IMG/VR virus record: IMGVR_UViG_3300033141_001722
Coordinates: 1 to 43,599 of that record
Source: a virus
Reading direction: 5' to 3' (one strand)
Length of the DNA: 43,599 nucleotides
Shown here piece after piece: positions 4,866 to 43,599 of the stretch (positions within the stretch are counted from its first letter, which is position 1; the number at the start of each line of letters is the position of its first letter). Under the pieces are notes generated by a model. That model was not told the DNA's origin. It ran no database searches and saw only the letters and a list, made by a program, of their open reading frames with translations. Both the position numbers and the translations under genes were made by a program.

Positions 4866-5095
4866 GCGTAACACCGTAACGATCCGTAACAGCCCCCGGA
4901 ATAGGGGTGCCGGGGACACAGTACGGGGGGTCGGCCCCTATTCCACGGGACGTTACGGGATGTTACAATTATAATATTAATATATTTATAGAAGACTCGT
5001 AGGGGGGATACCCATCGGGACCGTTCCGTGGTTCCGGGGCGTAACAGCGTGGAGGGCGGCGATTGTTACGGACTGTTACACTGTTACGGGAACAG
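4866..5095. repeat. Iteron/AT-rich region A, candidate origin or control region
   Basis: About nine GTAAC/GTTAC motifs in both orientations (typical forms CCGTAACA and TGTTACGG) fill 230 bp. An AT-rich tract (4965..4992) lies among them. GGAATAGGGG (4898..4907) and CCCCTATTCC (4935..4944) form a stem, and GGAATAGGGG is repeated in the right-hand region (42894..42903). This combination resembles iteron origins with an unwinding element; it also forms the leader of the radical SAM gene. Confidence 0.6.
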
Positions 5096-5104
5096 GAGAT
5101 CAAA

Positions 5105-6046
5105 ATGGAGATAGCAAAGGATCCTAATGTTTCAATTGTTTTGCCTGGGTGTAACGCTAATTGCGCTTTCTGTTTTATTAACTACAACAAGGCTGTAGTG
5201 GCCGCGGGGTGGTTGGAGCAGCTTGAGAGGAATCTGAACGCGTTACCAAAGGACTTCTGGCAGATAAGTATAACGGGGGGCGAGCCGCTAATAAGTAAAC
5301 ATCTAGTGAACGTGTTGAACGTTATCGATAGATCTAGATGGAAAAAGGTAGTGCTAACCACTAATGCCTTATCACTTGACGAAGAGGTTGCAGGCCGCCT
5401 TAGGGGCAAAGTGGATCATGTAAATATAAGCCGATATTCGTCAAGCAACTCTGTTAATGTAAATGTGTTCGGGGTATATCTAATGCCTACGGATGCCCAA
5501 TTACGTAGATATATATCAATATTGAACATACATGGCATAGATGTAACGTTTAATTGTGTACTACGTCCGTGTGGTTTAGACGAATACGGACGTGCAGGTG
5601 GAGTATATAGATATATAGCATGGGCAAGAGGGTTGGGGGCTCAGGCGGTTTCATTTCGGAAGCAACAAACGGATGGGGGGGATCTGGAACCCACCGCAGA
5701 AGAGAAGGCATTTACACATCACAAAGTAATAAACGAAACGCGCTGCCCCGTATGTAGATCCAAAACCCAGCTAATTAATGGAATGAAGGTAATATGGAAG
5801 GCTGCCTTACATCACCGGGACACAGTTTTGCCAGATAAAGTGCATGAATTAATATGGCAACCATCCGGAGAGTTTACGTTGGACTGGGGCGGCAAATTTC
5901 CTTTAATGAAAGCTTTGCTAAGAGATAATGATATAAGATTGCGACTGGATCTAGGGGTGACGAAAGGAAGCCCGGTTGATGGCGTCACTATTAAGGGCAG
6001 GCCGCATTCCCCTAGAGAAATAATCGTATGGGAATGGCCCATCTAG
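5105..6046 (+). CDS. Radical SAM enzyme (313 aa)
   Basis: The cysteine motif C-x3-C-x2-C (C16, C20, C23 in GCNANCAFCF) binds the 4Fe-4S cluster that cleaves S-adenosylmethionine, and GGEP at 58..61 matches the family's SAM-contacting motif. A further C-x2-C (C214, C217) might hold a second cluster or zinc. AACAGGAGATCAAA precedes the ATG at 5105; a longer TTG start at 5063 lies within the iterons and is disfavoured. The substrate is unknown. It is not clearly QueE, because no other 7-deazaguanine genes are seen. It stands alone between the iteron region and the replication operon, so a role in nucleotide or DNA modification is possible but unproven. Confidence 0.8.
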   Translation: MEIAKDPNVSIVLPGCNANCAFCFINYNKAVVAAGWLEQLERNLNALPKDFWQISITGGEPLISKHLVNVLNVIDRSRWKKVVLTTNALSLDEEVAGRLRGKVDHVNISRYSSSNSVNVNVFGVYLMPTDAQLRRYISILNIHGIDVTFNCVLRPCGLDEYGRAGGVYRYIAWARGLGAQAVSFRKQQTDGGDLEPTAEEKAFTHHKVINETRCPVCRSKTQLINGMKVIWKAALHHRDTVLPDKVHELIWQPSGEFTLDWGGKFPLMKALLRDNDIRLRLDLGVTKGSPVDGVTIKGRPHSPREIIVWEWPI

Positions 6047-9589: not shown

Positions 9590-9807
9590 AACTTGTAATG
9601 CAACCAGTCAACGTTAATGATAAGGCGGTAACGATCCAGTTATTTGTGGAGTCGTCTACCCGTCATAGGGCATTTATTGGAATTATGTCTTTTACACGAG
9701 CTGAATTTATTTCGTTTAGGGATGTGCTGGTTAGGGGCACAGCATCCAAGAAAACGGATACGGAGCTTATTGTGCATCCATTACTACATGCTCTAGAGAA
9801 ATCATGA
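9586..9807 (+). CDS. Hypothetical protein (73 aa)
   Basis: It starts in an ATGA overlap with the preceding stop and ends in an ATGA overlap with the primase-helicase. The product is a compact alpha/beta protein (MKLVMQPVNVNDKAVTIQLF, then FTRAEFISFRDVLVRG) without metal ligands or membrane segments. No family is recognised. Tight coupling on both sides argues that it is real. Confidence 0.55.
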   Translation: MKLVMQPVNVNDKAVTIQLFVESSTRHRAFIGIMSFTRAEFISFRDVLVRGTASKKTDTELIVHPLLHALEKS

Positions 9808-12443
9808 AGTATTCTGAATTATTTATAGGTAGACCCGGATACCATGCTCTAGCCTACAAAAAGGGTAGGGGATATAGACCCATAAAACGGCCACTGTCCC
9901 CCCTAATCATTCGGAAACATTTGGTGGGGGATATAGTGGCGGGTTTGTATCTTATAAGGCCAAAGGATAATGGAGTACGTCTGGTGGCTTTTGATATAGA
10001 CCAAGACGATCCTTCCTTATCAAAGACCATCGCCCGCAACGCCGTTATAGATGTACCGGATACATCGGTGCTTATAGAACGGACGGGGGGCAGAGGATGG
10101 CATGTATGGATATTTTTCGATGACTGGATAGAAGCCAGGCTAGCACGTGCTTTTATGCGATCAATACTGGAAGGCATAGAATTATCCTACCCGGTGGAAT
10201 TGTACCCAAAACAGGACCGCATACGGGCAGAAGGTTTAGGTAATTTGGTCAGATTACCTTTAGGAGTACATCAGAGAACCGGAAACACTGGCGTATTACA
10301 CAATGCATTTGGTTTACCATTTGAAATAGATGGGAATGAAGAAGATCCGGATTTACCAATAGAACCTGCCCCGCATGGTTTGGTAAGGCGAGTGGCCGAA
10401 ATGCGCTTGGAAGCGGAGAAGGCTGTAATGCCGGTGGTAGATGATGGGGGGCCTGCCACGCTAGCTTGTATAAGCCATTTTAGAAAGGGAGTGAAGGAGG
10501 GGGCCAGAGATGAGGCTATGTTTAGATTAGCCGCATATCTACACAGGCAGCAGATTCCAAAGGATGCGGCTTGGTTAGTATTAGCGAAAGCCAACGAAGG
10601 CAATAAACCCCCACTAACGGATACGGAGCTAAATGTAAAGCTGAATAGCGCCTTCTCCGGAGCAGGATATGGCCTGCCGTGTTCGAGTGATCTTGTGGGG
10701 CTGGACTCCGAATTCTGTAACCCATCATGCCCAGTGTACAGTACTGCTAAGGCACGGGCCGGGGGAGCGGCAGTGGGCAGGCTGCCTGATGCCGCTGGAT
10801 CTAAATTTCCTAGGCTGGTGGAACGGGACCATTCGTATATATATCAATCTATAAATAAAAGTGGAATATTGGAAAAATCTATATCCAACTTCGTTATGGA
10901 GGTATTATCTAGACTAGAGATGCCTGGGGATGATGTGGATGTACTTAGGGTCAGGGCCATAGCGCAAACTGGCAGGGAGGATATAATGGACGTGCCAGTT
11001 AGCGCGTTCTCAAGCAAGGCTATGTTGCTGCGGAAGCTAACCAGGGCTGAGTATGCTTGGTACGGTAGTGATGTACACTGTCAATATCTAAAATCACATC
11101 TTACTTCCATCGATCTGGAGACCCAAATAGCTGTAACCAGGGTTGGGCGGTATACTACCGAGGAGGGAATAGACATATGGGTTACACCAAAAGGAGTTGT
11201 AACCCCAAACGGCGTAGAAACGGAAGGTACAGGATACACATATCACAGGCCAGAACATTTTGGTATTATTCACATTCGTACGCCGGAGAAGAGTTTCTCA
11301 AAGGATCGTGCAAAAAAGGCCGCACGAGATTTATGGAATCTAAACACAGCAGGGGTTATGACTCCCGTAATTGGATGGAGCTTTGCCGTCCCATTTAAGC
11401 CGTTTTTTATGGAGCGGCTTGGGCATTTCCCTTTACTGATGTTATATGGCACAAGGGGGGCCGGGAAGACCCAATTAATACAGCGGACGGTGATGCCTCT
11501 TTTTGGGTATTCAGCAAGGGAGCCGCAAATCTTTTTCTGTGACACCACTCGCTTTGTGATGGTCTCTTATGGAGCATCATCAGCTACTGTGCCCTTGTTT
11601 TATGATGAATACAGGCCAAATGCTTTGCCTAGCACTAAGCTTAGACAGATATGGGACCACTGGCGACATTTGTATGCAGAGGACACCGACCACAGAGGGC
11701 AATCGGATTTATCTCGGTTGTCATTTAAGCAAACAGCCCCCATTATTATAGCCGGGGAAGAGATGGTGATGGACCCGGCCATGCAGGAGCGTATAGTGCA
11801 AGTCGGAATGTCTCCTGATAACCTAACTAGGGACAGGCAGAAAGCATTTCGAAGTATGCCCCCCATGGAGCTGGCCAGCCTAGAATTCATAAAGCACTCA
11901 TTAAGCATAAACCCGGTACCGATACTAGATGCGGCCAGGGAAAGAATATCTGGACAATGGGAGCAGCTTGTTTCCCCTAGGGTATACGATAACATGCTGG
12001 TGGTATCCTTCGGATTGGGGGTGTGGTCAAAATTTACGGGTAGGAAAGTAACTAAGGAGATGACCAATCACATATTTGACGTGTCCCAAATGGTTATAGA
12101 CGATGAGGGAGGCGTGCGCACGGCTCTGTGGGTTGATGATTTCATACTAGATGTAGCTGGAATAGTAGAAGAGAAGGGGCCATTCACTTGGGGTGTGGTA
12201 GAGAGGGATGGGGATAATAGTATGTTGTACATCAACCTACGGAGGGCTCATGCCGAATGGGCAAAAGATATGCGAGCCAGAGGGGACCATGCAGTAGGCA
12301 TTCAACCAATAAAAAGGCAATTGTCGGAAGAGGCCGCAGCCCGGTTTGTAGTAAAAAAGGGCATGCAGAAACGCATGATGGGAGCCAATACCAGGGTATA
12401 TGCTATAGACTTAACAGCCATGAGGGATGTTATAGATGAATAG
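9804..12443 (+). CDS. Primase-helicase with AEP/TOTE-like primase domain (879 aa)
   Basis: The N-terminal domain carries the archaeo-eukaryotic primase signature: D64-x-D66 (VAFDIDQDD) for metal binding, SGG-like TGGRGWH with H100, and GNLVRLPLGVHQRTG near 146 to 160, as in TOTE and PrimPol-type enzymes. A DUF927-like middle region leads to a Walker A (YGTRGAGKTQ, near residue 547), an acidic Walker B (FYDEY, near 598) and a downstream arginine-containing sensor (PAMQERIVQ), giving a superfamily 3-like helicase or translocase. The protein should prime and unwind at the fork beside the family A polymerase that follows. It overlaps the previous gene by 4 nt. Z-genome cyanophage S-2L is also reported to use a PrimPol-type primase-polymerase. 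Confidence 0.8.
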   Translation: MKYSELFIGRPGYHALAYKKGRGYRPIKRPLSPLIIRKHLVGDIVAGLYLIRPKDNGVRLVAFDIDQDDPSLSKTIARNAVIDVPDTSVLIERTGGRGWHVWIFFDDWIEARLARAFMRSILEGIELSYPVELYPKQDRIRAEGLGNLVRLPLGVHQRTGNTGVLHNAFGLPFEIDGNEEDPDLPIEPAPHGLVRRVAEMRLEAEKAVMPVVDDGGPATLACISHFRKGVKEGARDEAMFRLAAYLHRQQIPKDAAWLVLAKANEGNKPPLTDTELNVKLNSAFSGAGYGLPCSSDLVGLDSEFCNPSCPVYSTAKARAGGAAVGRLPDAAGSKFPRLVERDHSYIYQSINKSGILEKSISNFVMEVLSRLEMPGDDVDVLRVRAIAQTGREDIMDVPVSAFSSKAMLLRKLTRAEYAWYGSDVHCQYLKSHLTSIDLETQIAVTRVGRYTTEEGIDIWVTPKGVVTPNGVETEGTGYTYHRPEHFGIIHIRTPEKSFSKDRAKKAARDLWNLNTAGVMTPVIGWSFAVPFKPFFMERLGHFPLLMLYGTRGAGKTQLIQRTVMPLFGYSAREPQIFFCDTTRFVMVSYGASSATVPLFYDEYRPNALPSTKLRQIWDHWRHLYAEDTDHRGQSDLSRLSFKQTAPIIIAGEEMVMDPAMQERIVQVGMSPDNLTRDRQKAFRSMPPMELASLEFIKHSLSINPVPILDAARERISGQWEQLVSPRVYDNMLVVSFGLGVWSKFTGRKVTKEMTNHIFDVSQMVIDDEGGVRTALWVDDFILDVAGIVEEKGPFTWGVVERDGDNSMLYINLRRAHAEWAKDMRARGDHAVGIQPIKRQLSEEAAARFVVKKGMQKRMMGANTRVYAIDLTAMRDVIDE

Positions 12444-12499
12444 CAATAGGCATTTGCGTGTGTTCACTGGAGCAGCAATGTACAGGAGGTACACAGAGC

Positions 12500-14290
12500 A
12501 TGGATGACTGGATGTGGATAGGAGATGATCCACGTGATATACTCAACACCACCGGTAGGCAAGTGGCTCTGGACACGGAGACGACGGGGCTATATTTCCA
12601 GGATGATGTACTGGGCATGGGGCTGGCCTGGAGGGGGAGTGGCGGGGATTTGAAATCCGTGTACATAAAAGCACCCATTGGGCAGATGTCCCTTATGGAT
12701 ATGTCGCTGCCCGGCGGTACTATTAACATAAAGCAAGCCCTGGACGATATACACAAGAACCACACCATTATATATCATAATGAAGTGTTTGACAACAGGG
12801 CGTGCTTCCGCATTAGCGACTCCATGCCAAGGCTAATCACACACGATACCCAGCATATGGCCCCATTACTGGAGTGGCAGGGATCCGTCAGCCTAAGTAA
12901 TCTTTACGCCAAATATGTAGGGGATGAAATATCGGGGGAATACGTGAAGATGAAATCAAATAGACACAGACTAGAAAGTATACCAACTGAATTCGTTGCC
13001 GATTATGGGCGCGGCGATGCCGAGAATACATTAAAATTATTTGAGGTACTAAGGCCTCGGGTGGCCAGGGAGATTAGGAGATCCCTATATTCCGAGGATA
13101 GGGAGTATGCCCGATTGGTTATGCATCTTGTGCGGAGGGGGCTGAAACTCAATTTTAAGTGGTGCCAGCTAACAGAAGCCAGATTTAGCGGCAGGATGCG
13201 AGAAATCGAGAAGCGTCTAAAGTCGCTCGGGCTTAAGAATATTGGATCTAACCCATCTGTGGCGACCTTTCTATATAAAACAAGGGAAATACCCCAATAC
13301 TGCGCCGATATTACTAGAATAAGGAATGCCACGTGGCCAAACGGGGTGCCATCTGTAAGAAGTGATGTGTTGGAACATTACAGGGATGTAGAGGAAGTGA
13401 GGTTGATACTAGAATGGCGACAGCTGCAGGGGGCTATAGGCAAGTGGTTACACAAGTTTAGGGAACATGCTAGCATAGATGGTAAAGTTCATGCTCTGTT
13501 AGACCCATTTGGCACAATATCGGCCAGGATGGCCGCATCAAATCCGAATGTATTGGCAATACCCATAGAGGATAGAGGAGCGGCTTTTGGGTCTATGCGC
13601 GGGATGTTCTCGGAAAGAGGACCTGGCAAATACAATACGAAAAGGTTCGATAAGCTGTGGAGCGTGGATTACTCACAGATGGAAACGCGGTTGGCGGCTG
13701 TAATGGCTAGAGAGAGGGGCTTAATAGATGCACTGAATTCAGACACGGATCCTTACGTAGTTATGGCAAATAACCTGTGGGGAGACACGTCCCGTAGGCA
13801 GGAGGCTAAGAGGGGAACGCTGGCCAGTATATATGCCGCTGGGGCGAATACCCTATCAAATAGCATGAAAATACCAGTAGACCACGCGGCGGATATTCTA
13901 AAAGCCTTTAGATCGATATATCCCCGCATATCTCTTGCCACATCTTTAGCGGAGCGTGTAGCCAAGAAATCCGGACGAATAGAAATATTCACGGGGAGAA
14001 CACGGTATTTTGGGCCAAATGAGGAAAGCTACAAGGCGTTTAACCAGAAGGTGCAGACCACGGTAGCGGAGATAATAAAAAAGGCCATGCTGGATATTGA
14101 AGGATGGCGTCCCGGTATATTACGCTTGCAGGTGCACGACTCCGTTGTGTTCTTTTGCCCCAAGCAAACCCCCAACGACGTTGGGGGAGGCGAATTGGTG
14201 GAGGGGATAAAACTTATACTGGAGGATGCAGTGCCAGCGGAATATAGAGATGTGGTTAAATTTCCTACGGATGGAAAGCCATGGGAATAA
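12500..14290 (+). CDS. Family A DNA polymerase with 3'-5' exonuclease, DpoZ candidate (596 aa)
   Basis: Exonuclease motif I is D25-x-E27 (ALDTETTG), with motif II-like NEVFD and motif III-like YGRGDAENT. Polymerase motif A is VDYSQMETR (D390), motif B R433-x3-K437 then Y445, and motif C VHDSV (H546, D547). The position matching Phe762 of E. coli Pol I is Leu441, and YAAG replaces the usual YG. The ATG at 12500 follows AGGAGG; the upstream in-frame start at 12458 has none. In phages with 2-aminoadenine DNA, the family A enzyme DpoZ accepts dZTP and lies beside purZ, as here. Whether this enzyme prefers Z over A cannot be read from sequence. Confidence 0.9.
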   Translation: MDDWMWIGDDPRDILNTTGRQVALDTETTGLYFQDDVLGMGLAWRGSGGDLKSVYIKAPIGQMSLMDMSLPGGTINIKQALDDIHKNHTIIYHNEVFDNRACFRISDSMPRLITHDTQHMAPLLEWQGSVSLSNLYAKYVGDEISGEYVKMKSNRHRLESIPTEFVADYGRGDAENTLKLFEVLRPRVAREIRRSLYSEDREYARLVMHLVRRGLKLNFKWCQLTEARFSGRMREIEKRLKSLGLKNIGSNPSVATFLYKTREIPQYCADITRIRNATWPNGVPSVRSDVLEHYRDVEEVRLILEWRQLQGAIGKWLHKFREHASIDGKVHALLDPFGTISARMAASNPNVLAIPIEDRGAAFGSMRGMFSERGPGKYNTKRFDKLWSVDYSQMETRLAAVMARERGLIDALNSDTDPYVVMANNLWGDTSRRQEAKRGTLASIYAAGANTLSNSMKIPVDHAADILKAFRSIYPRISLATSLAERVAKKSGRIEIFTGRTRYFGPNEESYKAFNQKVQTTVAEIIKKAMLDIEGWRPGILRLQVHDSVVFFCPKQTPNDVGGGELVEGIKLILEDAVPAEYRDVVKFPTDGKPWE

Positions 14291-14328
14291 TGAATAGGAT
14301 AGGGCTATCCAGAGTAAATAGGATGGAG

Positions 14329-14568
14329 ATGACTCTTATAATCAACTACAGAGGGGTATTTGATAATCCAACAGTAGACGCCTTTTGTAAGCTACTAGAC
14401 ATGGAGGTGGAGGATTTTATCTGGGAGATTAGTGATAGCACGGCGGGCAAAATACGGGATACAGTATTAGAAAGGATTACCAATGGCACTCGGAAACCTA
14501 ACAATAGTGTACGGGGGTCAGTACGGGTCAGAAGGAAAGGGACAGATCGTAGCATATCTGTCAAGTAG
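14329..14568 (+). CDS. Small protein overlapping purZ (79 aa)
   Basis: A frame from ATG 14329 (preceded by AGGATGGAG) runs 86 nt into the purZ reading frame. It encodes an acidic helical first half (AFCKLLDMEVEDFIWEI) and a basic tail (RGSVRVRRKG). An alternative ATG at 14281 overlaps the polymerase stop. The frame is plausible because it fills the gap between polymerase and purZ, but the long overlap makes the tail suspect. Function not recognised. Confidence 0.4.
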   Translation: MTLIINYRGVFDNPTVDAFCKLLDMEVEDFIWEISDSTAGKIRDTVLERITNGTRKPNNSVRGSVRVRRKGTDRSISVK

Positions 14569-15583
14569 ACAACATCAAGCATATGCCGTACGGGTCGGGG
14601 GACCAAACGCAGGGCACACGTTCTTATTACCTAACGGGAAAGCCCAGGTCGTCCAAACTATACCATCAACGCTGTTTATATCCCCAGATACTATCGGCGT
14701 TATTGGGGCCGCGGGGCTAATTCATGAGGATATCTTCTTCAAAGAGGTTGAGCAGGTGTATGAATATACTGGTACAGCGCCCACCATATTACTAGATAGT
14801 AGTGTGGGTTTGATTACTCGCGGCCACATGTCCCGAGAGGGTATACTTAAGGGAACCATTGGATCCACCGGGGAGGGGGTAGGTGCCGCAACAGCGGATA
14901 GGGTAATGCGGGATCCGGATATGGTGGTGGGTTGTCCCACAAACCTAGACAGGTTAATGGATAGGATAGGCTCCAACCTACCGGCCTCTGCGGGATTGCT
15001 GCCGGGCATAGATACAGCAATGGTCCTGAATACTAAATTGCGGGATGGATTAGATGTGGTTATTGAAGGAACGCAGGGAGTAGCTTTGTCTCTATACACA
15101 TCCGGACACTATCCATTCTGTACAAGCCGGGAATGTACACCGCAGGGCATGTTGGCTCAGACCGGTATAGCCGCCGAGAATGCAAATAGTGTGGAAAAGA
15201 TTATGGTTGTGCGGACATATCCAATCCGGGTAGGGGGGCCATCCGGTCCATTGCCTGGGGAGATAACCTGGGATAGGTTATCTAAGAAGACCAATGGGTA
15301 TGTTAAAGAGCCAGAGATAACTACAGTCACCAAGAAACCTAGACGAATAGCTGAGATTGACTTCAAAGCATTAAGAAGAGCGGTTACTATAACCAGACCA
15401 ACCGCCATTGCCCTAACGTTCTTGGATTATTGGTTCCCGGAGATAGCGACAGCTACCAACCCTAGCGCCTTTACCCAAGAGGTGTGGGATAGCATCAACA
15501 ACGTAGAGGATTTGTTGGGTGTACCGGTGAAATTCTTAAGTACCGGTTTCGGTACGGTAATTCCATTAAGAATCACCCTATAG
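14483..15583 (+). CDS. purZ: PurZ-type adenylosuccinate synthetase relative (366 aa)
   Basis: The fold is that of PurA: the P-loop-like GGQYGSEGKGQ, VRVGGPNAGHTF, a TG-x-G-x-G segment (STGEGVGAA), EGTQG, the YPFCTSRE stretch and YPIRVGGPSGP. The decisive residue is Ser16, where PurA has its catalytic Asp (G-D-E-G-K-G); replacement of this Asp is the published hallmark of phage PurZ. PurZ condenses dGMP with aspartate to give the succinyl precursor of 2-aminoadenine (dZMP); host PurB and kinases complete dZTP. About 366 residues is shorter than typical PurA (about 430), as in PurZ. It lies between the family A polymerase and a MazG-like gene, the expected Z-DNA neighbourhood. Confidence 0.9.
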   Translation: MALGNLTIVYGGQYGSEGKGQIVAYLSSRQHQAYAVRVGGPNAGHTFLLPNGKAQVVQTIPSTLFISPDTIGVIGAAGLIHEDIFFKEVEQVYEYTGTAPTILLDSSVGLITRGHMSREGILKGTIGSTGEGVGAATADRVMRDPDMVVGCPTNLDRLMDRIGSNLPASAGLLPGIDTAMVLNTKLRDGLDVVIEGTQGVALSLYTSGHYPFCTSRECTPQGMLAQTGIAAENANSVEKIMVVRTYPIRVGGPSGPLPGEITWDRLSKKTNGYVKEPEITTVTKKPRRIAEIDFKALRRAVTITRPTAIALTFLDYWFPEIATATNPSAFTQEVWDSINNVEDLLGVPVKFLSTGFGTVIPLRITL

Positions 15584-15595
15584 GAGGAGATGGCA

Positions 15596-15946
15596 ATGGG
15601 AAGCCAATTAGAATTCAGTAACTTTATGAATAAGACATTTAGAGAAATCTCCGGGAAGGCACAGGAGAAAGGGAGACAATACACTGGCGGCATAGACAGT
15701 GATGCCTTCTACAATTTTAAGCGATCCGCGTCTGAATGGGACACATGGGTACAATATCAGATCCTGCAGTTTGCCCAGAAACATTGGACCTTCCTAATTA
15801 GATGGGCTAAAACCACAGATCCATATATCAGCCGCAAAAAGACATTGGATAAGGTTAAGGACTCGGCCAAGGATATAGTTGTGTTTATGTTGTTACTACT
15901 ATTTTGGATCGAAACCAATATGCTAGGTACCACGGAGGAGGAGTGA
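15596..15946 (+). CDS. mazZ: MazG-like nucleotide pyrophosphohydrolase, MazZ candidate (116 aa)
   Basis: The all-alpha NTP-pyrophosphatase pattern is seen: F-x-E-I (14 to 18) and KGRQY, then DAFYNF, and a late acidic helix D89-x3-D93 followed by hydrophobic VVFMLLLLFWIE. This is the layout of small phage MazG/DUF1599-like proteins. AGGAGG sits 8 nt before the ATG at 15596, favouring it over the ATG at 15590. MazZ in Z-genome phages hydrolyses dGTP to dGMP, feeding PurZ; the adjacent purZ makes that the leading reading. Sequence identity is low and the family is broad, so the gene symbol is provisional. Confidence 0.6.
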   Translation: MGSQLEFSNFMNKTFREISGKAQEKGRQYTGGIDSDAFYNFKRSASEWDTWVQYQILQFAQKHWTFLIRWAKTTDPYISRKKTLDKVKDSAKDIVVFMLLLLFWIETNMLGTTEEE

Positions 15947-15947
15947 C

Positions 15948-16484
15948 GTGTTGATTTATATGGCCGGGGCAATAGACAGAGCGGATAAAAATGGTGCTTG
16001 GAGGAAGGAGTTACAAAGTACCATATTTCGTCAGTGGGATCCAACGTGTGGATGCGTAACCTTGTACAATCCATACGAGGCATTCAAGCTAACCGGTGTT
16101 CCCCTCATAAATCGGATGGATGCCGAAGCTATTGTAGCAATTAACAAACAGGCTCTATCGCGGGCGGACATTGTAATGGTACACTACACCCCCTTGGTGG
16201 AAACCTGGGGGACGGCTATAGAAACATTCGAAGCGTTCGAATTGGGCACCCCGGTCATTGTGTGGACATCCAATAAGGCAGCATTTGGCGCAGATGATCT
16301 TGAGGACATTACGCCAGCCTTTCTGCCTGTATACCTGCTTGCTCATGCATGGAAAGGGAGATGTTTTGTGGGGGCAAAGGCCGCTGTAAGGGAAATTAGC
16401 AAGGCCATCAGTAAGAGGAAAGCAAACAAACCCACGGATAGATGGAGATTTCGCTTAGCCCATAAGGTTAGGAGGACAACATGA
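15948..16484 (+). CDS. Nucleoside 2-deoxyribosyltransferase-like protein (178 aa)
   Basis: The N-terminus IYMAGAID followed by WRKEL, and the later INKQALSRADIVMV with GTAIETFEAFELGTPVIV, match the Rossmann-like nucleoside deoxyribosyltransferase superfamily. These enzymes exchange or hydrolyse the base of deoxynucleosides or deoxynucleotides; some members (DNPH1/Rcl type) cleave the glycosidic bond of dNMPs. GTG at 15948 is preceded by GGAGGAG. Placed between mazZ and dut, it may remove unwanted dNMPs or salvage bases during Z synthesis. The C-terminal 40 residues are basic (SKRKANKPTDRWRF) and unlike the usual family end. Confidence 0.65.
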   Translation: MLIYMAGAIDRADKNGAWRKELQSTIFRQWDPTCGCVTLYNPYEAFKLTGVPLINRMDAEAIVAINKQALSRADIVMVHYTPLVETWGTAIETFEAFELGTPVIVWTSNKAAFGADDLEDITPAFLPVYLLAHAWKGRCFVGAKAAVREISKAISKRKANKPTDRWRFRLAHKVRRTT

Positions 16485-16927
16485 CGCGCATACTGTTATG
16501 GCAAAAGGTATCTAAACTGGGGGGGTTGAAAAAGTCCCCCTACGAAGGGGATGCTGGAGTGGATATGGTAGTATCAGTACGCACCACTATATATTCGGCT
16601 GAACCGGAACCAACCAAGGTGCCGATGGGAATACGCATAGCCCTACCAAAAGATATGGCCGCCTTGGTGATTGGTAGATCAAGTGTTGCAAGGGAAGGGA
16701 TAGCAGTTGTGCCCACTGTAATAGATCAGGGGTTTAGAGGGCATATATACGCTCTTGTTTATTTGATAAATCCGCGTAAGGGGCATTGCAAGATAATCAA
16801 GGCCGGGGAAAGAATAGCCCAGTTACTGTTAATCCCATGCTTAGGGGACGGGTTGGTGTTAAAGGAGGTTAAACACCTGCCAGAGTCAGAGCGTGGTATC
16901 AGAGGATGGGGTTCATCGGGAGGATAG
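16481..16927 (+). CDS. dut: dUTP diphosphatase (148 aa)
   Basis: Five trimeric dUTPase motifs are visible: DAGVDM (24 to 29), GRSSVA (65 to 70), VIDQGFRGHI with catalytic D82, KAGERIAQLLLI (107 to 118) and the terminal RGIRGWGSSGG. Trp replaces the usual Phe in the last motif. Length and motif spacing fit the family. It hydrolyses dUTP to dUMP and pyrophosphate, keeping uracil out of phage DNA and supplying dTMP synthesis. It overlaps the previous gene by 4 nt and has GGAGG upstream. Together with the two preceding genes it forms a nucleotide-pool block. Confidence 0.85.
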   Translation: MTRILLWQKVSKLGGLKKSPYEGDAGVDMVVSVRTTIYSAEPEPTKVPMGIRIALPKDMAALVIGRSSVAREGIAVVPTVIDQGFRGHIYALVYLINPRKGHCKIIKAGERIAQLLLIPCLGDGLVLKEVKHLPESERGIRGWGSSGG

Positions 16928-18848: not shown

Positions 18849-19178
18849 TTACGTGCTACTGACATGGGATAGATTAATAACTCTGAATCTGAATTCGGCA
18901 TTTAGTTCCTCCCCGCCAGCATATGTGGCATTAACGGTTATGACGTGCGTTTCCTTGGTCTTTGTCTCGTCATGCATCTTTATGGCGTTTCCGGATAGAA
19001 CAATCTCCACCGACCCCCCGGTAGGGGATAGGGCGGTACTGCTAACAAGCTCCGCCCCGGTATCCTCATCGTGTACAGTATATGATGAGGTAGTCGGCTG
19101 GGCCAGATTGCCGTCCTTATCTTTGAATGAAGCGGTTACATAGGCTGTGGTTTTCTCGTTAACTGTGTCAAGTGCCAT
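18849..19178 (-). CDS. Small beta-rich tail-associated protein (109 aa)
   Basis: The sequence MALDTVNEKTTAYVTASFKD and the later EIVLSGNAIKMHDE, then HVITVNATYAGGEELNAEFR, is an Ig-like beta sandwich typical of small proteins encoded next to siphovirus fibre or baseplate genes. Its start overlaps the stop of the fibre gene (TAATG), suggesting translational coupling and a joint structural role. I cannot give a precise function. Confidence 0.5.
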   Translation of the reverse strand: MALDTVNEKTTAYVTASFKDKDGNLAQPTTSSYTVHDEDTGAELVSSTALSPTGGSVEIVLSGNAIKMHDETKTKETHVITVNATYAGGEELNAEFRFRVINLSHVSST

Positions 19179-21949
19179 TAGTCACACTCCGTAATATCGA
19201 ATTCTGCTAATCTGTTCTCCAAGTCGTCGAAGTCGGTGTCCCTAGATAACACACTGGACCATGTAGCACGTCTAGTGTAAAAATCGGAAAAACCCATACA
19301 GGCCAGTATTATTCTCCATATTAGATCCACTCTGTGTTCGTGTCTGATGTTATTTATCCCCAACATATGAGCTTGGGCAATAGATAAGCCATCCACTAGA
19401 TGCCCATGCCTCATATTGTTAATTACAAGCAGTATTGCGGGCGATACTATTACGTTGTTCGGGCGATGTAAGTGGCGCAATCCATCAATCTTTAGGTTGT
19501 GCTTCTGGGTGATAAATACTGGATTGATGTAGTGTATATGTCTCAGCCCCTGTATAACAAGCAGCGTGGCTCCGGTTAAGTTAATTTCACTAACGCGTTG
19601 CGTATGTCTCAGGTTGTATATTTGGAGATCGTGTGTTTGTGTAAGGACCAAAGGATCTACGTTATGGGCATGTCTAAGATTATTAACCAACAGGCTATAC
19701 GTTATTGGAAGTAGAATGTCCCCGGTTATGTGGTGGGTGTGGCGTAGGTCATCGACCCTGATATTATGGGATTGCGTTAATGATATATTTTGTATGTGGT
19801 GTGCGTGTCTGATACTATTAATGCCCAGATTATGTAACTGGGTAATGGAGAAGTCATCCAATCTATTTAAATGCCTAATATCATTTATGGTTAATAATAT
19901 CAGGCCCCCGAGATTAGATATACTACTTAATCTATGTTCGTGTCTTAACTCTCTGATTTGTAGATTATGTACTTGAGTTAGGCCTATGTCGCCTGTCGTT
20001 CTATGTAGATGTATGAGATCGGCGATGTTTAATAAGCTAAGTACCGATAATATTAAATCACCAATGCGGTGTGTGTGTTTCAGATCACTAACCTGCAGAT
20101 TATGTGCCTGCGTAAGATTTGTTGCGTCTATTCTATGTTCGTGCCTTAATCCGGATACCTGCAGATTGTGTAACTGGGCGACAATTACATCGTTCACCCT
20201 GTGTTGGTGTATAATGTCATTAATGTCCAATGTACTGGTTACTGATAGGGTTAGACCACCAATGCGGTGTATATGCCGTAGATCTTCAATCTGAAGACTA
20301 TGTGTCTGCGTAAGATCTATTCCGTCTATTCTATGCCCATGCGTTAATCCAGATACTTGCAGATTATGTGACTGTGTAAGGATCACATTATCTGTTCTGT
20401 GCGAGTGTATAAGATTAGCGATATTTAATATATTGGTTACTGATAAGATTGGATCTATAATGTGATGTAGATGCCTCAGACCATCGATTTGCAGATTGTG
20501 TGTCTGTGTAAGATGCACTCCATCTATTCTATGCTTATGTTTCAATCCAGTTATTTGTATATTATGTAATTGGGTTAGATTAATATCGGATGTCTTATGT
20601 AAATGACGAATGCTTTGTATGGCCAGGGTATCAGCATCAGAACCGATGCGGGTTTCCTCGGCCATAACGTCATCATAATACATGTTTATCCAGTTATCGG
20701 TTGTTGTCGTGCTGTGATAACCGCCCAACACTAAAGCATGGGCTGATAGCTCCGTACAATTACCTGATCCCTCCCAGGACCCCTGGGATGTATTATTTAC
20801 CCACATTTCTAGCTTGGCGTTTGTGCCGGAGCGATCATACATAATCTCGATTTCGTAATCGATGTCCTCAGAGAATGTCCACGTGATGCCGGTATTTACA
20901 AAATTCCCTGTACTATCAGTTGCATATACAGTAATAGTTGCCGTAGATGGATTAACATCACAGCGCCAGTATCGATTGGCTGATGAGATAGAGCTTTCGC
21001 TTAGCGTCCACAAACGCATGGCATTTGTATCATCCAGAGTGCCACGATCATCGCAGCGCCATCTCCACCAACAATAGACCTTATCCCCATTCGGCCATGT
21101 GATAAGTTTCCTCATATAGGCAGATGCTGTGACGGTAGTGGAGGATAACAAACAGCGACCGCTATAAACCCCCCCAAGCGCCGGGCTACTAACGACATCT
21201 AGGGTCACTGAACCGCTGGTGTATGTGTAATCCCAGTCACCAAGATCATTATTCTCAAAGTCACAAACTGCGGGGGAATTGGTAAACACGGTTGGAATTG
21301 AAAACTCAACACCACCCATTCTGTGTACATGCCTCAACCCGTCTACCTGTAGTTTATGTACCTGTGCCAATATTATATTGGATATTCTATGTAGATGTCT
21401 TGTGTCATCAATGCCTAGTCCGGATGATATATATGTAAAACGCGGTCGACGTGAGTAACTATCCAGCTGCGCGCCACCACTATCGCGAAGCTCAAAATCC
21501 CAATAATCGCCGGAGGATGCATTAGCAGTATCGATTTCAAGGCAAATACTAACTTCCCAATGATCCTGTCCGGCAAAATCAATACCATCAATTGCATCAC
21601 CAAGCAAGCCATTGCTATCAAGCTCTCCACCGGTGAACGTCAGAGATGATGTTGTAAGCCGATTGTTGTTGTCTGCATCCGCATCAGTGAACCAACTTGA
21701 AGGCGCTGCTCTCAACCCATCAGCGCGAGATTGATCAACGACAGTATAGGCACCTCCATTCTTTGCCGCATAAAGGTATCCACTCCAGTTGTTAGAAGCT
21801 TTCGCGTTTGTGACCTCAAGCTCAATCCGCAGGATTACATGGGTATCGTCACCAATTGAATAGTTAGCATTCTCAGCCGCAAGGCCCGTCCACCCAGACG
21901 TATCTTGGTAGAAGCGAAATCCATTCTGGTTGTAGATTGGGCTAGTCAT
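19178..21949 (-). CDS. Histidine-repeat tail fibre-like protein (923 aa)
   Basis: The N-terminal 175 residues are a beta-rich domain (NGFRFYQDTSGW at the start). A short repeat block follows, then a concanavalin-like domain of about 220 residues (DNWINMYYDDVMAEE near its end). Next is a long tandem array of about twenty 22-residue repeats of the form LTQ-x-HNLQI-x2-L-RH-x-H-R-I-x-D, and a 37-residue C-terminal cap. Repeats alternate between an LTQ-x-H type and an LSV type without the first His; most keep R/K-H-x-H. H-x-H motifs in trimeric phage fibres (T4 gp37 tip) bind iron along the axis. A receptor-binding fibre with a metal ladder is the inference. It overlaps both neighbours by a few bases. 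Confidence 0.75.
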   Translation of the reverse strand: MTSPIYNQNGFRFYQDTSGWTGLAAENANYSIGDDTHVILRIELEVTNAKASNNWSGYLYAAKNGGAYTVVDQSRADGLRAAPSSWFTDADADNNNRLTTSSLTFTGGELDSNGLLGDAIDGIDFAGQDHWEVSICLEIDTANASSGDYWDFELRDSGGAQLDSYSRRPRFTYISSGLGIDDTRHLHRISNIILAQVHKLQVDGLRHVHRMGGVEFSIPTVFTNSPAVCDFENNDLGDWDYTYTSGSVTLDVVSSPALGGVYSGRCLLSSTTVTASAYMRKLITWPNGDKVYCWWRWRCDDRGTLDDTNAMRLWTLSESSISSANRYWRCDVNPSTATITVYATDSTGNFVNTGITWTFSEDIDYEIEIMYDRSGTNAKLEMWVNNTSQGSWEGSGNCTELSAHALVLGGYHSTTTTDNWINMYYDDVMAEETRIGSDADTLAIQSIRHLHKTSDINLTQLHNIQITGLKHKHRIDGVHLTQTHNLQIDGLRHLHHIIDPILSVTNILNIANLIHSHRTDNVILTQSHNLQVSGLTHGHRIDGIDLTQTHSLQIEDLRHIHRIGGLTLSVTSTLDINDIIHQHRVNDVIVAQLHNLQVSGLRHEHRIDATNLTQAHNLQVSDLKHTHRIGDLILSVLSLLNIADLIHLHRTTGDIGLTQVHNLQIRELRHEHRLSSISNLGGLILLTINDIRHLNRLDDFSITQLHNLGINSIRHAHHIQNISLTQSHNIRVDDLRHTHHITGDILLPITYSLLVNNLRHAHNVDPLVLTQTHDLQIYNLRHTQRVSEINLTGATLLVIQGLRHIHYINPVFITQKHNLKIDGLRHLHRPNNVIVSPAILLVINNMRHGHLVDGLSIAQAHMLGINNIRHEHRVDLIWRIILACMGFSDFYTRRATWSSVLSRDTDFDDLENRLAEFDITECD
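19290..20635 (-). repeat. 66-bp tandem array encoding the 22-aa His repeats
   Basis: About twenty in-frame units of 66 bp (some 69 bp) encode the fibre repeats. Units are diverged at DNA level but recurrent words such as the complement of CTTAATCTAT/TGTGT are visible. A shorter block of the same units lies at 21300..21425. Confidence 0.8.
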
Positions 21950-43130: not shown

Positions 43131-43438
43131 ATGATACCCCCGGCTGGGTTTGCCCTTGCTTCGGTTGGGCAGCCCCCCCTTCCCTTTCGCCATGCCACCC
43201 CGCACCCGCCGAGCCCCAGCCCACACCCGCGGGGGCGAGACCGGAAGCGAGCGCGGGAAGCCGAAGCCCGTGGGGCGGGGGCCAAGCCGTCGCCCGCGGG
43301 AGCGGGGGCGGGGGCGAGATCAAGCCGGGCGGGAGCGCGGGAAGCACGACGCGACGCGGGCGAAAAACCTGCCCCCCCAAGCCCGCCCCCCGAGCCCCCC
43401 GAGCCCGTCCCTCCCCGCGTTTCCGTCCCGTCCCGGAG
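43131..43438. other. Very GC-rich stretch of doubtful coding status
   Basis: Base composition rises sharply to a C/G-dominated sequence rich in CCGG, GGGCG and CCCCC. A plus-strand frame from ATG 43131 (with AGGAGAGG upstream) stays open to the window end in frame with 43569, giving a Pro/Ala/Arg/Gly-rich product, but GC-rich DNA lacks stops by chance. It may be an unusual low-complexity gene, a packaging or end region, or foreign DNA. Confidence 0.4.
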
Positions 43439-43504
43439 CGTCAGCGGAACGTCAGCGGAGCGTCAGCTCCATGTCAAGCACGCGGGCTCCGCGCGTGGTA
43501 CAAT
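43439..43504 (+). promoter_or_regulatory. Second promoter with four 11-bp-phased GTCA boxes
   Basis: GTCAG boxes start at 43440, 43451 and 43462 and GTCAA at 43473, each 11 bp apart. TACAAT starts at 43499, exactly 26 bp after the last box, the same geometry as at 1100..1165. The flanking DNA differs, so the shared layout is not just a copied block. Confidence 0.6.
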
Positions 43505-43568
43505 GGGGGCGGAGGGGAAGCGGATCGGAAAACGCCGAAGCCGCCCGCCCGACCCGAAGGAGCCCACG

Positions 43569-43599
43569 ATGCAGACCGAAGAAACCGAAGCCCGCCAAG
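43569..43599 (+). CDS. Small protein, truncated at window end
   Basis: GAAGGAG lies 7 nt before the ATG at 43569. The frame reads MQTEETEARQ and is cut by the window end. If the molecule is circular and closes with base 1, the frame would continue to a TAA at 123..125 and encode about 51 residues. Downstream of the GTCA-box promoter. Function unknown. Confidence 0.35.
   Translation, partial: MQTEETEARQ

What the first reader, a model, noticed from the sequence alone, without database searches (positions are those of the whole stretch)
12500..16927. Likely 2-aminoadenine (Z) genome: family A polymerase, PurZ and MazG-like gene in one block
PurZ shows the Ser16 substitution for the PurA catalytic Asp and lies between a polymerase of DpoZ type and a MazG-like protein. 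This trio is the published signature of phages whose DNA has Z in place of A. A deoxyribosyltransferase-like gene and dUTPase follow in the same coupled run, which suggests a wider nucleotide-pool module around Z synthesis than the minimal published set.
Basis: partly seen in the sequence, partly recalled or inferred. Interest (0 to 1): 0.9.

Follow-up and report, generated by a model that had tools for sequence, protein, structure and literature searches.

The report
Z-DNA gene module, third PurZ lineage
This uncultured tailed phage very likely makes 2-aminoadenine (Z) to replace adenine in its DNA, using a gene set of a kind already described in some soil phages but built from unusually divergent enzymes that fall outside both known PurZ subfamilies.

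Summary
The genes are there. A family A polymerase, a PurZ with Ser16, a 118-aa helper, a deoxyribosyltransferase and a dUTPase run in one direction at 12458-16927. The Z-genome reading is supported, with four corrections. (1) Ser16 alone proves nothing: many bacterial and archaeal genomes encode PurA paralogs with the same Ser. Better evidence is the conserved TTVT loop and the neighbourhood. (2) The wider nucleotide-pool module is already published: PurZ0 phages carry DmtZ (NDT family), DutZ and DUF5664 (PMC12884076), and this window has the same gene order as HunterDalle. (3) The polymerase is sister to the DpoZ-1 (PurZ0) polymerases (100/97), but keeps Tyr where the described DpoZ clades share Phe, and is far below NCBIfam's DpoZ cut-offs. 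(4) "MazG-like" is not supported: no MazG or MazZ relationship was detectable. The 118-aa protein is instead a small family also found beside PurZ, MazZ and DatZ in phiVC8/S-2L-type contigs. With two IMG/VR contigs (PurZ 46% and 43% identical) the phage forms a lineage outside both known subfamilies; one of the two also carries a PurB-like lyase. Best reading: a new variant of the PurZ0-type Z system. Nothing here measures Z in DNA.

The parts
9804..12443 (+). AEP-type primase fused to a helicase-like region (replication), upstream neighbour as in HunterDalle/Wayne
   Evidence: Pfam AEP-TOTE E 2e-25 and PriCT_1; same position as the primase/polymerase/helicase gene of HunterDalle and Wayne, matched by a profile started from the window protein
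12458..14290 (+). family A DNA polymerase with 3'-5' exonuclease, sister to the DpoZ-1 (PurZ0) polymerases; Tyr steric gate kept, Leu at the E. coli Phe762 position
   Evidence: Pfam; motif B AKRGTLASIYAAG; tree: window+L015+L185 100/99, with the DpoZ-1 clade 100/97
14281..14568 (+). 95-aa ORF overlapping the start of purZ, doubtful gene
   Evidence: no Pfam or PHROG match and no relative in the other loci
14483..15583 (+). PurZ: succino-2-aminodeoxyadenylate synthetase, Ser16, TTVT loop 280-283, Asp315 at the nucleotide-donor base position
   Evidence: PHROG_1211 E 7.6e-67; NCBIfam PurZ 217 bits against a cut-off of 300; active-site table; trees
15590..15946 (+). 118-aa predicted all-helical protein of a small Z-phage-associated family (KGxxY..NF..KH..DxIxYxLLL); taken here as a dNTP-pool helper
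   Evidence: homologs in L015 and L185 and, beside PurZ/MazZ/DatZ, in L206, L209, L260 and near them in L257 (hhalign probability 97.5, E 5.5e-12); phrog_6802, unknown function
15948..16484 (+). DmtZ-like NDT-family enzyme; Tyr4, Asp10, Pro42, Asn66 and Glu92 match Ghobes DmtZ Tyr6, Asp12, Pro57, Asn77 and Glu103
   Evidence: alignments; model pLDDT 74, Foldseek hits to NDT, DNPH1/Rcl and YtoQ structures at E 2e-5 to 1e-3
16481..16927 (+). DutZ-like trimeric-type dUTPase (GRSS motif, VIDQGFRG, RGIRGWGSSG)
   Evidence: Pfam dUTPase E 2e-22; 31-35% identical to Ghobes DutZ and the Wayne/HunterDalle fusions; alignment

Best explanation
The block is the Z-DNA synthesis module of a tailed phage of PurZ0 type, from a lineage outside the two described PurZ subfamilies. 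PurZ joins aspartate to dGMP to give dSMP (inferred from Ser16, the TTVT loop and the conserved dGMP pocket), probably with GTP or dGTP as phosphate donor because Asp315 is kept (inferred). Host PurB and kinases, or a phage PurB-like lyase as in relative L185, turn dSMP into dZTP. The dUTPase-fold protein (DutZ-like) and perhaps the 118-aa protein hydrolyse dATP and dGTP to monophosphates, removing dATP and supplying dGMP to PurZ. The DmtZ-like enzyme destroys dAMP and can salvage free Z base into dZMP. The family A polymerase next door then copies the genome with Z opposite T. Shown here: gene content, order, active-site residues, kinship. Inferred: every activity and the presence of Z in the DNA.
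For: PurZ groups with the Ser-type enzymes, not Asp PurA (100/99), and has the TTVT loop found in all described PurZ and PurZ0 and absent from PurA, which has G[TSA][TV]TGR. Gene order primase-helicase, PolA, PurZ, small protein, NDT, Dut matches HunterDalle, whose close relative Wayne has enzymes shown to hydrolyse dATP/dGTP and dAMP and to transfer deoxyribose phosphate onto Z. The block is retained in L015 and L185, with PolA moved downstream of PurZ in L185, while little else in the compared stretches matches. PolA is sister to DpoZ-1 (100/97). DmtZ catalytic residues are all kept. L185 adds a Lyase_1 protein directly after PurZ, which fits a dSMP-cleaving step.
Against: No chemistry is available. 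Ser-type PurA paralogs exist in many bacterial and archaeal chromosomes with no known Z DNA. The polymerase keeps the Tyr gate and misses the NCBIfam DpoZ cut-offs by far (74.8 of 500 and 62.3 of 350 bits). PurZ misses its cut-off as well (217 of 300). A Bacillus phage not among the PurZ matches has an NDT with the same Tyr/Asp/Pro/Asn/Glu set, so those residues do not prove Z use. AU tests do not settle which PurZ group is nearest (p 0.39 for both). Neither DatZ nor MazZ was recognised among the genes scanned.
Confidence: 0.8

Rival explanations
1. The phage makes dZTP but only partly replaces A, because its polymerase is not selective for Z; the pool enzymes bias the dNTP mix and the DNA is a Z/A mixture.
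For: Polymerase has the ordinary Tyr gate, no phiVC8-type insertion in motif B and is best matched by a general DNA polymerase I model. S-2L shows that a polymerase without Z preference can be used if dATP is removed (abstract of PMC8065100). No DatZ was recognised here.
Against: The polymerase is sister to DpoZ-1 and stays with PurZ in all three contigs of the lineage; Tyr also occurs in several members inside the DpoZ-1/PurZ0 clade.
Confidence: 0.12
2. The Ser-type synthetase makes some other (deoxy)nucleotide, not dZ, as the cellular Ser-type paralogs may do, and the phage has ordinary DNA; the module serves nucleotide control or counter-defence.
For: Ser-type paralogs are common in bacterial chromosomes in conserved operons of unknown role.
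Against: The cellular paralogs mostly have other loop sequences (TSAT, TTAT, TSTT and the like) and other neighbours, whereas the window has the phage loop TTVT and the Z-phage neighbours; the FastTree puts it with PurZ and PurZ0 (97), less firmly in the careful tree.
Confidence: 0.07
3. PurZ is a recently captured cellular PurA and the neighbours are ordinary phage nucleotide genes.
For: By sequence search the nearest solved structure is Pyrococcus horikoshii PurA, ahead of phiVC8 PurZ.
Against: Ser instead of Asp, TTVT instead of the PurA loop, and Asp-type archaeal PurA lies outside the whole Ser clade with full support.
Confidence: 0.01

Closest known systems
PurZ0/DpoZ-1 module of Arthrobacter phages Wayne and HunterDalle and Gordonia phage Ghobes (PMC12884076)
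   Same: order primase-helicase, PolA, PurZ, small protein, NDT (DmtZ), dUTPase (DutZ) as in HunterDalle; DmtZ catalytic residues; Asp at the donor-base position; polymerase in the sister clade
   Different: PurZ outside the PurZ0 clade (about 32% identical); separate NDT and Dut genes rather than the Wayne fusion; 118-aa family instead of DUF5664; polymerase keeps Tyr instead of Phe
phiVC8 / S-2L / SH-Ab 15497 Z cluster (PurZ, MazZ or DUF550, DatZ, DpoZ-2)
   Same: PurZ with Ser and TTVT loop; family A polymerase in phiVC8 and SH-Ab; the 118-aa family also occurs in environmental contigs of this type
   Different: no DatZ or MazZ recognised; Asp315 instead of Asn/Gln; no motif B insertion in the polymerase; PurZ 26-31% identical
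Cellular Ser-type PurA paralogs (genome contigs L097-L176)
   Same: Ser in place of the catalytic Asp, related fold and length
   Different: mostly a different aspartate-loop sequence, different operons (RNase H/DUF429/kinase or M78 peptidase, DCD-like, dNK, DUF7002), PolA and NDT almost never near

Membership tests
PurZ (2-aminoadenylosuccinate synthetase, broad sense) | Asp to Ser at the PurA catalytic position | tested here: met
   Ser16 aligned with S23 of S-2L; the six PurA references have Asp; not specific to phages
PurZ (2-aminoadenylosuccinate synthetase, broad sense) | TTVT aspartate loop (S-2L T273-T276) and dGMP pocket residues | tested here: met
   T280 T281 V282 T283; N42, A43, T129, R143, Q198, R249, V250 and R287 conserved
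PurZ (2-aminoadenylosuccinate synthetase, broad sense) | NCBIfam NF038379 cut-off (300 bits) | tested here: not met
   217 bits
PurZ (2-aminoadenylosuccinate synthetase, broad sense) | converts dGMP plus Asp to dSMP | not testable with these tools
   needs enzyme assay
PurZ0 subfamily | inside the PurZ0 clade | tested here: inconclusive
   outside the 100/99 clade; a tree with both held together is not rejected, AU p 0.386
PurZ subfamily of phiVC8/S-2L type | inside the PurZ isolate clade; Asn/Gln at S-2L position 308 | tested here: not met
   outside the 100/99 clade and Asp315; AU p 0.392 leaves sister position open
DpoZ | kinship with DpoZ-1 or DpoZ-2 polymerases | tested here: met
   sister to DpoZ-1/PurZ0 polymerases, 100/97; only five non-PurZ controls in the tree
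DpoZ | Tyr to Phe at the steric gate of helix O, shared by both described clades (PMC8599892) | tested here: not met
   Tyr459 in window, Tyr also in L015 and L185
DpoZ | NCBIfam DpoZ cut-offs | tested here: not met
   74.8 of 500 and 62.3 of 350 bits
DmtZ | NDT fold with Tyr6, Asp12, Pro57, Asn77, Glu103 | tested here: met
   Tyr4, Asp10, Pro42, Asn66, Glu92; NDT/DNPH1/YtoQ fold hits; same residues also in a phage NDT away from any recognised PurZ
DmtZ | dAMP hydrolysis and transfer to Z base | not testable with these tools
   needs enzyme assay
DutZ | dUTPase fold next to DmtZ and PurZ | tested here: met
   dATP/dGTP activity not testable here
MazZ / MazG-like | profile or fold match to MazG, MazZ, DUF550 or DUF5664 | tested here: not met
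   no Pfam match; hhalign probability 1.2 to MazZ and 1.1 to the Ghobes-type protein; poor model, no fold hit
DatZ | HD-domain dATP triphosphohydrolase in the genome | tested here: not met
   DatZ profiles do not hit the window; no HD domain in the window genes scanned with Pfam

The most novel reading that the evidence does not exclude
The window, L015 and L185 are a third phage PurZ lineage with its own way of keeping A out of DNA: no DatZ, MazZ or DUF5664, but a new small all-helical enzyme plus DmtZ/DutZ-type genes, and a polymerase that handles Z with an ordinary Tyr gate, so that Z selectivity has another basis than in described DpoZ.
Probability: 0.35. Interest if true: 0.6.

Novelty: new variant of a known kind. 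Interest (0 to 1): 0.45.

Why it matters
It shows that phage Z systems are more diverse than the isolates suggest. It offers polymerases that may use Z without the described Phe signature, which bears on the open question of how DpoZ prefers Z over A. It also shows that the Ser signature used to call Z phages is shared by bacterial and archaeal chromosomal enzymes, so Z genomes should be called from several markers together.

Tried and rejected
Megablast against phage isolates: no match. A single-protein scan of viral contigs with PurZ found nothing; an alignment was needed. MazG label: Pfam, NCBIfam, profile comparison with the Ghobes-type protein and with MazZ, and a fold search all failed; it was replaced by the Z-phage family seen. 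Asp12 of DmtZ as a Z-specific marker: rejected because a Bacillus phage NDT not among the PurZ matches has the same residues. Phe steric gate as a universal DpoZ marker: rejected, most PurZ viral contigs have Tyr and Ochrobactrum phage OH has Ser. Placement of PurZ next to PurZ0 or to PurZ by AU test: undecided. A control set of cellular NDT proteins could not be fetched.

Full report
What is in the window. The record is a whole IMG/VR virus contig of 43,599 bases, GC 48%, with early genes on + up to about 18.3 kb and structural genes (terminase, portal, prohead protease, HK97-type capsid, tape measure) on -. The stated block is real: polymerase 12458-14290, PurZ 14483-15583, a 118-aa protein 15590-15946, NDT-like 15948-16484, dUTPase 16481-16927, all on + and tightly spaced, behind an AEP primase-helicase at 9804-12443.

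PurZ. Residue 16 is Ser, aligned with Ser of phiVC8, S-2L and SH-Ab 15497 PurZ and of PurZ0 phages, and with Asp of PurA. The aspartate loop is TTVT, as in all described PurZ and PurZ0, where PurA has G[TSA][TV]TGR; the dGMP pocket residues are conserved; the position that reads the donor base is Asp315, as in PurA and the PurZ0 clade (18 of 18), whereas PurZ isolates have Asn or Gln. From this I infer a GTP-type donor. PMC12884076 states ATP for PurZ0 and GTP for PurZ, while PMC8342488 shows ATP/dATP use by S-2L PurZ, so this point needs an assay. An IQ-TREE of 89 enzymes puts all Ser-type enzymes together apart from Asp PurA (100/99) and pairs the window with L015 (100/99), outside the PurZ isolate clade (100/99) and outside the PurZ0 clade (100/99). 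AU tests do not decide which of the two it is sister to (p 0.386 and 0.392). A later scan found a third member, L185, 43% identical. NCBIfam's PurZ model scores 217 bits, under its 300-bit cut-off.

Ser is not diagnostic. A scan of genome contigs for Ser-type enzymes found 353 related stretches; of 81 sequences read, 75 have Ser, 2 Gly and 3 Asp. The scan patterns included the Ser motif, so this is not a frequency, but it shows that chromosomal Ser-type paralogs are widespread. They fall in two large groups, about 345 aa and about 540 aa with an N-terminal P-loop kinase-like domain, mostly have other loop sequences, and sit in other operons. PolA and NDT genes are near 2 and 1 of 80 of them. 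Of 80 viral contigs, 25 of the 64 with room upstream have PolA and 41 of the 54 with room downstream have NDT or dUTPase. The case for Z therefore rests on Ser plus TTVT plus neighbourhood, not on Ser.

Polymerase. It is a full exonuclease-polymerase of family A. In a careful tree it joins L015 and L185 (100/99), sister to the DpoZ-1 polymerases of PurZ0 phages with their environmental relatives (100/97); the five non-PurZ controls fall outside. Its motif B, AKRGTLASIYAAG, keeps Tyr where PMC8599892 reports Phe as the one mutation shared by both DpoZ clades, and lacks the motif B insertion of phiVC8 DpoZ. Tyr is also present in L015, in L185, and in most polymerases of environmental PurZ contigs, including members inside the DpoZ-1/PurZ0 clade, so Phe is not a general marker. 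NCBIfam DpoZ scores are far below cut-off.

Nucleotide-pool genes. HunterDalle, a Wayne relative, has the order primase-helicase, PolA, PurZ0, DUF5664, DmtZ-DutZ, with small ORFs between; Wayne is the same with an HNH gene inserted, and Ghobes carries PurZ0, DmtZ and DutZ close together as separate genes. The window NDT matches the DmtZ catalytic set (Tyr4, Asp10, Pro42, Asn66, Glu92), is modelled at pLDDT 74 and finds NDT, DNPH1 and YtoQ structures. Asp12-type Asp is found in 48 of 53 NDTs near PurZ, but also in a Bacillus phage NDT away from any recognised PurZ, so it does not prove Z use. The dUTPase is of the trimeric type.

The 118-aa gene. No Pfam or NCBIfam match, phrog_6802 of unknown function at E 2.6e-5, no detectable relation to MazZ or to the Ghobes-type protein, and a low-confidence all-helical model without fold hits. 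It has homologs directly before NDT in L015 and L185, and a related family of about 100-127 aa lies beside PurZ, MazZ and DatZ in L206, L209 and L260 and near them in L257 (E 2.5e-11 to 7e-7, hhalign 97.5%). It is thus tied to Z modules of both kinds, but a MazG activity is only a guess.

Conservation of the block. L015 keeps PurZ (46%), PolA (33%), dUTPase, the 118-aa family and NDT in the same order, with little else alike in the compared stretch. L185 keeps the same five families with PolA downstream of PurZ, and has a 446-aa Lyase_1 protein directly after PurZ, as expected of a PurB-like enzyme for dSMP; Ghobes also carries an annotated adenylosuccinate lyase.

Verdict. A Z-genome phage of PurZ0-like organisation and a new lineage is the best reading (0.8 for the mechanism). 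It is a new variant of a known kind. No step here measures Z in DNA or any enzyme activity.

Noticed in passing
L130, L137, L171, L101 and about 35 further genome loci (genome contigs): Ser-type PurA paralogs of about 345 aa in bacterial chromosomes form a recurrent operon: a ~670-aa protein with RNase_H_2, DUF429 and P-loop kinase-like domains, the PurZ-like enzyme, a DCD-like protein of ~340 aa, and often a deoxynucleoside kinase. No PADLOC 2023 system fits. Could be an undescribed nucleotide-based system.
   Followed up: partly
L139, L147, L169 and about 25 further genome loci (genome contigs): A second recurrent operon: M78 peptidase protein with a DarG-like C-terminal match, a P-loop kinase fused to a Ser-type PurA (~540 aa), and DUF7002. 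Function unknown.
   Followed up: partly
L185:7052-8392: Lyase_1 (PurB-like) protein encoded directly after PurZ in the third member of the lineage, as if the phage brings its own dSMP lyase.
   Followed up: no
L009 (Ochrobactrum phage OH): The polymerase of this PurZ/MazZ/DatZ phage has Ser at the steric gate position, neither Tyr nor Phe.
   Followed up: no
window 43150-43599: The last 450 bases have 67-82% GC with strong AT skew against 48% for the whole record; possibly a chimeric or artefactual contig end.
   Followed up: partly
window 19178-21949 (-): 923-aa protein with many repeats of the type LTQTHNLQIDGLRHLHRI, likely a tail fibre or adhesin.
   Followed up: no
window 5063-6046 (+): Radical SAM protein with weak resemblance to QueE-like and anaerobic ribonucleotide reductase activase families.
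   Followed up: partly
PMC12884076, results section: The paper gives ATP preference for PurZ0 and GTP for PurZ, which seems reversed against S-2L PurZ using ATP/dATP and the Asp to Asn/Gln change at the donor-base position.
   Followed up: partly
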